Part shown: positions 33,094 to 36,862 of the stretch, piece by piece
Layout of the letters: each line of letters starts with the position of its first letter
Numbering within the stretch: position 1 is the first letter of the stretch
Source of the DNA: an uncultured Synechococcaceae cyanobacterium
Lineage (GTDB): Bacteria; Cyanobacteriota; Cyanobacteriia; PCC-6307; Cyanobiaceae
DNA length: 37,736 nt
Direction of reading: 5' to 3'
Assembly: GCA_903907855.1 (NCBI GenBank)
Contig: CAIVPT010000148.1
Coordinates: 1 to 37,736, forward strand
Position numbers and translations under genes: made by a program
Notes under the pieces: generated by a model
Database searches by the model: none
Told to the model about the DNA's origin: nothing
The model's input: only the letters and a program-made list of their open reading frames with translations

Positions 33094-33723
33094 ATGCAAC
33101 GATCCTTTCTTCGCGCACTCTTTGTGGGTTGCGGCGCTTCCTTGCTCGCCTTGCCAGGTGGTGATGCGCGGGCGGTGGCGACCATCTTCGCGAAGCAGGA
33201 TGGTGCCAATGTCGTGTTCACTGGTTCGGGAAGCCTGAATCTCACGGAGTTGGATTTCCTGCAGGTCAGTCCGCTTTGGTATAACTATTTCAGTACACGG
33301 CCAAGCGATGCCGAGTTTCAGGTGGGTGCGGTTCCCGGCAGTACCTTAGGCCTCTATTCCTGTGCGTTTGGCGCTTGTATTACAGGCCCATCAAGTTTTG
33401 GTAATGCCTCTGAGCGTTACAGCTTCCCCGATCTCGGTTCCGGCGATGCTTTTGGCTTCTGGGATTTTGAGGGTCAGCGGGGAATCGTCGTGCCTTTCGA
33501 CTATGTTTCGGGATCTGAGTTGAGCGGTAGTAGTACGTTTTTAAACCGTACATTGGCCCGTATGGGCGTCAAGCTTGGTACCTCCGTCTACAGCTGGGGG
33601 AGTGGCGATACTGCGGACAGCATCGTCTTCACCACGGAGGCTCCCGCCCCTCTGCCCCTGTTCGGCGCGGCTTCTGCGCTGGTCTGGAGCCGCCGGTTGC
33701 GTCGTCGCTTCTCCCAGGGGTAA
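33094..33723 (+). CDS. Exported protein with PEP-CTERM-like C-terminal sorting signal
   Basis: N-terminal signal sequence; C-terminus TEAPAPLPLFGAASALVWSRRLRRRFSQG (Pro-rich motif, TM helix, Arg cluster). Confidence 0.7.
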   Translation: MQRSFLRALFVGCGASLLALPGGDARAVATIFAKQDGANVVFTGSGSLNLTELDFLQVSPLWYNYFSTRPSDAEFQVGAVPGSTLGLYSCAFGACITGPSSFGNASERYSFPDLGSGDAFGFWDFEGQRGIVVPFDYVSGSELSGSSTFLNRTLARMGVKLGTSVYSWGSGDTADSIVFTTEAPAPLPLFGAASALVWSRRLRRRFSQG

Positions 33724-33787
33724 CCATCCCCCCCATTCCGACTCGCCATGGCGCCAGCGAGCCCGGGCCACGGCCGCGCACTGGCGT

Positions 33788-34115
33788 TCACGCTCCGGCG
33801 GCTTGGCGCAGCAGCGGCCCCGGCCAGTCGATGATCGCCCGATCTGCTGTCAGCAGGGTGGCGCCCCGCGCCAGGGCTATCTCCACCAGCCAGAGCCGCC
33901 CAGGGACCATCGATCGGGGCCAGCACATCCCCGTGGATCTCCACGGCCGGATGGAGTCCGCAGGGACTGGGACGACGGACGGAGGCGCAGGGGTGCAGCT
34001 CCGCCACAGGCTGGCCGTTCTTGGTGATCACCAACACCTCACCCGTGGCGGCCACCTGGTCCATCAACCCCAGGCAGCGGGCCTTGAACTGGGAGGCGCT
34101 GATCGTGGCCGCCAT
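33788..34115 (-). pseudogene. Remnant toxin-antitoxin module: Phd/YefM-like antitoxin joined to a C-terminal fragment of a VapC-like PIN toxin in another frame
   Basis: Antitoxin MAATISASQFKARCLGLMDQVAATGEVLVITKNGQPVAELHP...VEIHGDVLAPID (start 34115); PIN tail ...RLWLVEIALARGATLLTADRAIIDWPGPLLRQAAGA* (33788-33910), different frame. Confidence 0.65.
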
Positions 34116-34211
34116 GGCTGTCCCCACAGGGTGCGGGCCTAAGTCCAGCTGGATGATGACCATGGTCAGGACCAGGGCCAACTCGGTATCAGGGACAACT
34201 CGGTGGTGCCC

Positions 34212-35402
34212 TCAAGGCTTCACGACGGTCGCCTCGAGGAAGCTGTGGGGCCGCTCGGCGGTGGCGAGGTAGTAAATCACCACCAACTCGCCCCGCTCGT
34301 TCACGGCCATCTGCGGGTAGCCCATGTCGAGGTTGGAGGGGTTGGCGCGCAGGAGTAGGGGCGGACCCCAGCTGCGGCCCTCGTCGTCGCTGAGGCGCAG
34401 CACCATCGCCCGCTGGCTGCGGTTGGCGTAGGTGGCCGCCAGTCGTCCATCGCGCAGCCGCACCAGGGCCGCGGGGTTGCCGTTGTGGGCGCCGGTCTGG
34501 CCCACCCGGCTGAGGAAGCGCCAGTTGCGGCCGCCGTCGCCAGAGGCGTAGGCGTCGATCCAGTTGGGGGTGTCTTCGGGGGCGCGGGGATCCCGGCGCC
34601 GCAGGGCCACCACCAACCGCCCGTCGCCCAGATCCACCAGCGAGGGCATGACGGCCCGATTCGGGTCGCTCCAGGGCACCACCCAGCTCACGAAGGCGAA
34701 GCTGCGGCCGCCGTCGCGGGTCTCGGCCACGAACGTCTTGTCCAGGCGTTTGCTGTGGCGTCCCAGCTGCGGATCGCGGGCCGAGAGCAGGAACTGGGCC
34801 GAGGCCGCTCCGGTGACGCGGACGCTGGTCCGGGAGGTGAGGATCAGGCCCCGCAGCTCCGGAGCGCCCTCGAGGCCCGCGAAGCGGAAGGGACCCTCCC
34901 AGCTCCGGCCCCGGTTGTGGGAAACAAAGAAGCGGCCAAGACGGTCCTGCGGCGTGCCCGTGCCATCGGCCACCACGCGGATTGCCAGATCGGGATCATC
35001 GAAAAGGATCGGCTTCAGGAGAGGCATCGGCGCACCCTCCCGGCCCACGTAGGGGGAGGGGGTTTCCTGGTGCCAGCTGCGGCCGCCGTCGAGGGAGCGG
35101 GCCAGGCGCTGCACCTGGGGATGGCCCACCTTGTGGCCCTCCTTCTCCTGCCACGGGCCATCGTGGAAGCCCACCAGAAGTTCGCGGCCGCCATCCCAGC
35201 TCCAGATCCCGTTGTTGGCGGGCCAGGCGAGGAAGCGGCCGGGTTCCGCGGCCACGGTGACCCTCGCCAGCACGGTGGGAGCGGATCGGGCGGGTAGGAC
35301 CAGCCCCAGCTCCAGCCCCAGCGCCAGGGACAGCGACGCCAGCACGGGCAGGAGCGGCCGCCCCCAGTTGGCCGGCACGGGCTGGGCTTTCAACACGCCC
35401 AT
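34212..35402 (-). CDS. Secreted exo-alpha-sialidase-like (BNR/Asp-box) protein
   Basis: Signal peptide MGVLKAQPVPANWGRPLLPVLASLSLALGL...ARSA; Asp-boxes SLDGGRSW, SHNRGRSW, TRDGGRSF, SGDGGRNW, SDDEGRSW. Confidence 0.75.
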   Translation of the reverse strand: MGVLKAQPVPANWGRPLLPVLASLSLALGLELGLVLPARSAPTVLARVTVAAEPGRFLAWPANNGIWSWDGGRELLVGFHDGPWQEKEGHKVGHPQVQRLARSLDGGRSWHQETPSPYVGREGAPMPLLKPILFDDPDLAIRVVADGTGTPQDRLGRFFVSHNRGRSWEGPFRFAGLEGAPELRGLILTSRTSVRVTGAASAQFLLSARDPQLGRHSKRLDKTFVAETRDGGRSFAFVSWVVPWSDPNRAVMPSLVDLGDGRLVVALRRRDPRAPEDTPNWIDAYASGDGGRNWRFLSRVGQTGAHNGNPAALVRLRDGRLAATYANRSQRAMVLRLSDDEGRSWGPPLLLRANPSNLDMGYPQMAVNERGELVVIYYLATAERPHSFLEATVVKP

Positions 35403-35700
35403 CGAGGTGGGGGTCGACGTAAGGGTCTTCTTTGAGGGCAAAGTCCATGGTGTCGGCATAGATTTCTGGCTTGCCATCGCCGATGCCTTCAAGCCTGTTG
35501 CCAAGCAGTGTGGTCGCGGTGATTGTTTCATCTGTGCTGCACTGCTGATGGGAGTGGTAGGTGCCGATGGTGATAGATGGAAGCGGGGCTCCGCCATTCT
35601 CGTCGCTAACCTGAAACTCGCAGGAGAACTCGATGCTAAGGCTAAGCGCGCACCCATACCTGCCAATGGCTCTGAGCAATGCAGAGATTGCATCAAGCGA
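35403..35700 (-). pseudogene. Orphan coding fragment of unknown function
   Basis: Frame reads SLDAISALLRAIGRYGCALSLSIEFSCEFQVSDENGGAPLPSITIGTYHSHQQCSTDETITATTLLGNRLEGIGDGKPEIYADTMDFALKEDPYVDPHLDG with normal composition, no good start, and loses protein-like character at the sialidase-like gene start. Confidence 0.35.
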
Positions 35701-35959
35701 TCAGTGCAGGGATGAGGAAGATCGCTACTAACATGGCTATCCGGCAAGGGGGGGATTGATCGCAGACTTGCTGGTGCGTGAGGTGATCGCTGCCAGCGGG
35801 CAGGCGTGCGTACAAGAAGCTGGCGGGTGCCCAGCCGGATGGGGGGCTTGAGGGCGGCTGGATTGGGGTCGCGATTTACTGCGGAAAAGGTTGGCACTGT
35901 CCCGCCAGGGAAGGATGCCAGCCATAGGCCAGGAGCCAGAAGGCTGACGGACGCCTGCG

Positions 35960-36862
35960 CTATCCCCCGATCAATGTCTCCAGCGCGGCGGTCAGGTCGC
36001 TCTGGCGCATCAGGGCCTCGCCCACCAACACCGCATCCGCGCCGGCGCTCTGCACCCGGTCGAGGTCGTCGCGCGTGAACAGGCCCGATTCGCTTACCAC
36101 CAGTGCCCCCCGGGCGCGCAGCTCCGCACCGAAGCGCTGCAGCAGGGCCTCGGTGGTGGCCAGATCCACCGCAAACGTGCTCAGGTCGCGGTTGTTGATG
36201 CCGATCAGGGGGCGCTCGTTGGCACCCGTCAGCGTGTCGAGGGCCAGCACCCGTTCCAGTTCGGCTTCGTCGTGCACCTCGATCAGCACCGCCAGCCCCA
36301 GGCCCCGGGCCACCTTGAGCAGGTAGGCCAGATCGCTGTCGGTGAGAATTGCGGCGATCAGCAATGCGGCGTCGGCGCCGGTGGCCCGGGCCTGATAGAG
36401 CTGATAGGGGCTGAGAATGAAGTCTTTGCACAACAGCGGCAGCTCCACCGCCAGCCGCACATTGGCCAGCACGTCGTAGCCCCCCTGGAAGAAACGGCGG
36501 TCGGTGAGCACCGACAGGCAGCTGGCGCCACCGGCGGCGTAGGCCTGGGCGATCGCCACCGCATCGAAATCCTCCCGCAGCACCCCCTTGCTGGGGCTTG
36601 CCTTCTTCACCTCCGCAATCACCGCCGGCTTGCGACAGGCCGCCCGCAGGGCAGCCACAAAATCCCGGCAGGGGGGGAGTTCCGCCACCTGCTGGCGCAG
36701 CTTCTCGAGGCTCACCCGCTCGCGCGCGGCGTTCACCTCCCGGTCCTTCTCCCAGACGATCTCCTCCAGGATGTGTCGCGGTTTGCCCTCCTCATGGGGG
36801 ATGCCGTACTCCAGGTGGGCCACCTTCACGGAGGGGTTGGGCGGACGGCGGCGGATTTCCAT
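35960..36862 (-). CDS. trpC: Indole-3-glycerol phosphate synthase
   Basis: [75 protein letters not shown]. Confidence 0.96.

What the first reader, a model, noticed from the sequence alone, without database searches (positions are those of the whole stretch)
33788..34115. Collapsed toxin-antitoxin module: antitoxin joined to the tail of a PIN toxin
On the minus strand a Phd/YefM-like antitoxin (MAATISASQFKARCLGLMDQVAATGEVLVITKNGQPVAEL...GLHPAVEIHGDVLAPID) is followed immediately, in a different frame, by a typical VapC C-terminus (RLWLVEIALARGATLLTADRAIIDWPGPLLRQAAGA*). The N-terminal part of the PIN domain is missing, which fits an internal deletion that disarmed the toxin and left most of the antitoxin. 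The antitoxin could still be expressed and act as an orphan anti-addiction factor.
Basis: partly seen in the sequence, partly recalled or inferred. Interest (0 to 1): 0.6.

Follow-up and report, generated by a model that had tools for sequence, protein, structure and literature searches.

The report
Toxin-antitoxin pair with deleted toxin
In this freshwater cyanobacterium a toxin-antitoxin gene pair has recently lost three quarters of its toxin through small deletions, leaving the antitoxin and its control site behind; this is a clear but ordinary case of such a gene pair falling apart.

Summary
A sister genome (G230/L089, 93% identical flank) carries the intact module at the same place: a 76-aa Phd/YefM antitoxin overlapping a 133-aa PIN (VapC-like) toxin. 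Against it the window lacks 301 bp in two pieces: 217 bp (2-nt overlap; antitoxin stop and toxin residues 1-72) and an in-frame 84 bp between two GCCCTGG repeats (28 more residues). Left are antitoxin residues 1-75 and 33 toxin residues, so the 'tail' is two fused toxin fragments. Three of four likely PIN acidic residues are gone. The GACCATGGTC operator-like palindromes upstream are intact; the perfect site is unique in the genome. Of 18 evaluable loci 13 are intact; 5, at least 4 independent losses, lack the toxin. In three of the other four toxin-less loci the antitoxin is also damaged, and in all four the palindromes are lost or weakened. This favours recent pseudogenisation over a retained anti-addiction role, which remains possible but unsupported. 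Orphan antitoxins are common in the literature. Interest is low.

The parts
34145..34179 (-). Operator-like tandem palindromes: GGCCCTGGTC (degenerate) and GACCATGGTC (perfect; TGACCATGGTCA at 34157-34168), 12 bp apart, about 50-64 nt before the antitoxin start
   Evidence: the same palindrome, usually two copies 12 bp apart, lies upstream of all 13 intact modules checked; TGACCATGGTCA occurs once in the whole genome; identical in the sister genome
33891..34115 (-). Phd/YefM-type antitoxin, residues 1-75 of the ancestral 76
   Evidence: TIGR01552, PF02604; 97% identical to the intact module's antitoxin in G230
33588..33890 (-). Run-on of the antitoxin frame after loss of its stop codon (about 100 unrelated residues, stop at 33588; overlaps the toxin remnant out of frame and the convergent gene 33094-33723 in antisense)
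   Evidence: (ORF 33588-34181) compared with the stop at L089:3229-3231
33887..33893 (-). Deletion junction 1: antitoxin ...GCTCTGG joined to toxin codon 73; 217 bp lost (antitoxin stop and toxin residues 1-72)
   Evidence: comparison with L089:3227-3443
33871..33889 (-). Internal toxin fragment CTGGTGGAGATAGCCCTGG (LVEIAL, toxin residues 73-78)
   Evidence: matches L089:3444-3462 with one difference
33871..33877 (-). Deletion junction 2: 84 bp (28 codons, in frame) lost between two GCCCTGG direct repeats (L089:3456 and 3540)
33788..33870 (-). C-terminal PIN toxin remnant (toxin residues 107-133 and stop)
   Evidence: 2 substitutions in the 90 nt from 33877 to 33788 against the intact toxin of G230

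Best explanation
This is a recently broken Phd/YefM-PIN (VapBC-like) type II toxin-antitoxin module in a Synechococcaceae chromosome, downstream of trpC and a BNR-repeat gene. After the split from the sister lineage G230, deletions between short repeats removed 301 bp: the antitoxin stop codon and toxin residues 1-72, plus 28 further toxin residues. No PIN nuclease can be made. The operator-like palindromes and the antitoxin reading frame survive, so a 175-aa antitoxin with a chance 100-residue tail is probably still made at some level and may repress its own promoter. Without a toxin it is expected to decay. Shown: the deletions, the intact ancestral arrangement, the preserved palindromes, the decay of the antitoxin in other toxin-less lineages. 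Inferred: expression, autorepression, lack of present function.
For: An intact module at the same site in G230/L089 with a 93% identical flank, the window missing 301 bp within otherwise continuous synteny. Breakpoints resolved to two gaps of 217 and 84 bp, with GG and GCCCTGG overlaps. 13 intact modules of the same build in the family sample, with toxins hitting PF01850 at E=2e-12 and 1.2e-11 for the two scanned. Toxin alignment with invariant D5, E45, D95/D98, D116, of which only D116 remains in the window. No intact toxin of this subfamily found in the window's genome (E<=1e-25; own-genome PIN loci at best 35-40% over 35-40 aa). In other toxin-less loci the antitoxin is broken (G227, G143, G236) and the palindromes are lost or weakened (those and G105). 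Window-lineage change F52C at a conserved antitoxin position.
Against: The antitoxin is little diverged from the intact copy (5 substitutions in 225 nt; dN 0.012, dS 0.054), so selection on it cannot be excluded; the numbers are too small to test. Only one genome of this lineage was available, a draft of 320 contigs, so fixation of the deletion is unknown.
Confidence: 0.88

Rival explanations
1. Orphan antitoxin kept by selection as an anti-addiction (immunity) factor: the remaining antitoxin neutralises the same toxin when it arrives on mobile DNA or by recombination from relatives.
For: Antitoxin residues 1-75 and the palindromes are preserved; intact modules with 86-97% identical antitoxins exist in the genus. 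Orphan antitoxins have been proposed as anti-addiction modules (PMC7192599, PMC10790755).
Against: The stop codon is lost, giving a 100-residue foreign tail. F52C lies in the C-terminal half, where toxin binding is expected, at a position that is F in the aligned relatives. In three of the four other toxin-less loci the antitoxin has decayed, not what retained immunity predicts. No PLSDB plasmid carries similar DNA, so no mobile source was seen.
Confidence: 0.07
2. The run-on antitoxin is kept as a DNA-binding regulator, of its own promoter or of other genes.
For: The N-terminal (DNA-binding) part is unchanged from G230 at the amino-acid level and the operator palindromes are intact.
Against: The perfect 12-mer palindrome occurs only once in the genome, at this locus, so no other target is apparent, and autoregulation of a toxin-less gene has no obvious benefit.
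Confidence: 0.03
3. Assembly artefact: the deletion does not exist in the organism.
For: Draft assembly of 320 contigs.
Against: The junctions share only 2 and 7 nt with the alternative sequence, too little for an assembler to join by mistake, and the region carries lineage-specific substitutions on both sides.
Confidence: 0.02

Closest known systems
Phd/YefM antitoxin + PIN (VapC-like) type II toxin-antitoxin modules
   Same: Antitoxin matches TIGR01552/PF02604; the intact relatives' toxins that were scanned match PF01850; antitoxin first, short overlap with the toxin, palindromic operator-like sites upstream
   Different: In the window 100 of the toxin's 133 codons, with the start and three of four likely catalytic acids, plus the antitoxin stop, are deleted
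Orphan antitoxins, as catalogued in Klebsiella pneumoniae (PMC7192599) and Escherichia coli (PMC10790755)
   Same: An antitoxin homologue persists without a functional toxin in the context of the original module; remnants of a degraded locus are a named explanation there
   Different: Here the ancestral state, two breakpoints and the stop-codon loss are resolved against a close relative; the product (175 aa) would exceed the 150-aa limit used in those surveys

Membership tests
Phd/YefM antitoxin family | Match to curated family models | tested here: met
   TIGR01552 27.9 bits, cut-off 20.8. PF02604 27.8 bits, just below gathering 29.8, E=2e-6; G230's intact antitoxin scores 29.8
Phd/YefM antitoxin family | Own stop codon after a short C-terminal toxin-binding segment, as in the intact relatives | tested here: not met
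   Stop deleted; frame reads on to 33588
Functional type II Phd-PIN (VapBC-like) module | Complete PIN toxin with its conserved acidic residues | tested here: not met
   Residues 1-72 and 28 more missing; D5, E45 and D95/D98 absent, D116 present
Functional type II Phd-PIN (VapBC-like) module | Palindromic operator-like site upstream of the antitoxin | tested here: met
   GACCATGGTC-type palindromes, usually in tandem, upstream of all intact relatives checked; binding itself not tested
Functional type II Phd-PIN (VapBC-like) module | Toxin inhibits growth and antitoxin neutralises it | not testable with these tools
   Needs expression experiments
Orphan antitoxin / decayed module | Antitoxin in the syntenic context of an intact module, without a functional toxin | tested here: met
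   G230 comparison; no subfamily toxin elsewhere in the genome
Anti-addiction antitoxin | Retained antitoxin neutralises a toxin encoded in trans | not testable with these tools
   No matching toxin in the own genome and no plasmid match

The most novel reading that the evidence does not exclude
The antitoxin, now a 175-aa run-on protein, is retained as an immunity factor against the same module circulating among freshwater Synechococcaceae, so that this family shows repeated one-sided loss of toxins with selectively kept antitoxins.
Probability: 0.07. Interest if true: 0.4.

Novelty: new member of a known kind. Interest (0 to 1): 0.2.

Why it matters
It gives a base-resolved example of how a chromosomal toxin-antitoxin module dies: here the toxin is lost by short-repeat deletions while the operator-like site and antitoxin linger. 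It also places this within a bacterial family where the module has been lost repeatedly. It is mainly useful as an annotation caution: the 175-aa ORF would be called an antitoxin although no toxin remains.

Tried and rejected
A plasmid search with the locus DNA (distant blastn) found nothing. The phage collection was not searched. The first assumption of one deletion joining the antitoxin end to the 'FIVATAL' region was rejected once the G230 sequence showed that LVEIAL is toxin residues 73-78, so two gaps are needed. A compact conserved fusion gene was rejected because no relative shows the arrangement. A dN/dS comparison of the antitoxin with the flanking BNR-repeat gene was uninformative: 5 substitutions, similar ratios. 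A PDB sequence search with the intact toxin gave no hit. Promoter and terminator scans gave nothing. Structure prediction was not run because it would not separate the hypotheses.

Full report
Observation. From ATG 34115 there is a Phd/YefM-type antitoxin (TIGR01552 above cut-off; PF02604 E=2e-6, slightly under the gathering score). In another frame it is followed by a 36-aa stretch that has no family hit of its own but matches the C-termini of PIN toxins in six related genomes. The window is a contig of a 3.0-Mb, 320-contig genome. The named relatives carrying the antitoxin are Synechococcus and other Synechococcaceae/cyanobacterial records, several of them MAGs.

The ancestral state. The closest relative, G230 (its locus matches L089 = CANEWU010000002.1, MAG Synechococcaceae bacterium CE-Jul18-108), has the same neighbouring genes, the upstream side 93% identical in DNA and the downstream side 84%, and an intact module at exactly this place: a 76-aa antitoxin whose end overlaps the start of a 133-aa PIN protein (PF01850 E=2e-12). 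Acidic residues D5, E45, D95, D98 and D116 are among the invariant columns in nine aligned intact toxins; which of them are catalytic is inferred from knowledge of the PIN fold.

The deletion. Against L089 the window lacks 301 bp. The window reads GGCGGCTCTGG | CTGGTGGAGATAGCCCTGG | CGCGGGGCGCC. The first block ends antitoxin codon 75 (plus one base). The middle 19 nt is toxin codons 73-78 plus one base. The last block is the toxin from codon 107 onward. The simplest account is two deletions: 217 bp with a 2-nt (GG) overlap, which takes the antitoxin stop and toxin residues 1-72; and 84 bp, in frame, between two GCCCTGG repeats. A single complex event is not excluded. What remains is antitoxin 1-75 and 33 of 133 toxin residues, with only the last acidic residue (D116).

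The antitoxin lost its stop codon. Its frame now continues for about 100 residues, through the toxin remnant in the wrong frame and in antisense through the end of the convergent gene 33094-33723, to a stop at 33588 (175 aa from 34115). No relative examined has this arrangement.

The operator. Upstream of the antitoxin lies GACCATGGTC with a degenerate copy 12 bp before it. The same palindrome, usually as a tandem pair with 12-bp spacing, lies upstream of all 13 intact modules checked (window-wide rate about 0.003 perfect copies per 130 bp). The 12-mer TGACCATGGTCA occurs once in the window's genome, at this locus. Since Phd-type antitoxins autoregulate through palindromes (established knowledge of the family), this is most likely the module's operator, and it is identical in the window and in G230.

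Survey. In up to 400 family genomes plus the genus, 19 loci of this antitoxin subfamily were found, one of them cut by a contig end. Of the 18 evaluable, 13 have a full toxin. Five do not: the window; G105 (antitoxin intact, palindrome weakened to 2 mismatches, followed by a HepT/MntA-like pair); G143 and G236 (same genus, 96% alike; antitoxin start and palindromes lost, toxin internally deleted against intact G171); and G227 (27-nt deletion in the antitoxin, palindromes gone, toxin essentially gone). That is at least four independent losses if G143 and G236 share one. In three of the four other toxin-less loci the antitoxin is broken too, and in all four the palindromes are lost or weakened; the window looks like the freshest of the series. 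One reverse case exists: G221 keeps a full toxin ORF and the palindromes but has lost about the first 37 codons of the antitoxin.

Function. The best explanation is a recently pseudogenised module whose antitoxin may still be made. The anti-addiction idea remains untested. The genome has no intact toxin of this subfamily to neutralise and no similar plasmid DNA was found. The window-lineage replacements are F52C, at a position that is F in the aligned relatives, and a change to G at the variable residue 70; the changes assigned to the sister lineage are synonymous. That hints at relaxed constraint, but the counts are too small to test. Orphan antitoxins are common in published surveys, which list degraded modules, anti-addiction and regulation as explanations (PMC7192599; PMC10790755).

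Verdict. The functional suggestion is unsupported. Ordinary biology, low interest.

Noticed in passing
L129 (G221 C27), locus positions about 1340-1896: Reverse case at the trpC-adjacent locus: about 135 bp with antitoxin codons 1-37 deleted against G215, palindromes and the complete PIN toxin ORF retained, and only the C-terminal half of the antitoxin left without an obvious ATG/GTG/TTG start. How the cell tolerates the toxin is unexplained.
   Followed up: partly
L098/L102 (G105): Intact antitoxin of this subfamily whose PIN toxin is gone and which is followed by a HepT-like / nucleotidyltransferase (MntA-like) pair, a different toxin-antitoxin type.
   Followed up: partly
window 33900-36862; L089, L115, L078, L129: The module appears to sit directly after trpC in G215, G221 and G227, but in the window and G230 a BNR-repeat (sialidase-like) gene lies between trpC and the module, so that gene was gained or lost at this site.
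   Followed up: partly
window 34168-34206: Imperfect tandem duplication of ACCGAGTTGtCCCTGAT/ACCGAGTTGgCCCTGGT just upstream of the operator-like site, absent in the sister genome.
   Followed up: no
whole genome G000: Rich in toxin-antitoxin parts: 18 PIN-domain and 14 Phd/YefM matches, several clustered on contig C108.
   Followed up: no
window 33094-33723 (+): Secreted-looking ORF with no Pfam or NCBIfam hit; its C-terminus (APAPLPLFGAASALVWSRRLRRR) resembles a PEP-CTERM-like sorting signal.
   Followed up: no
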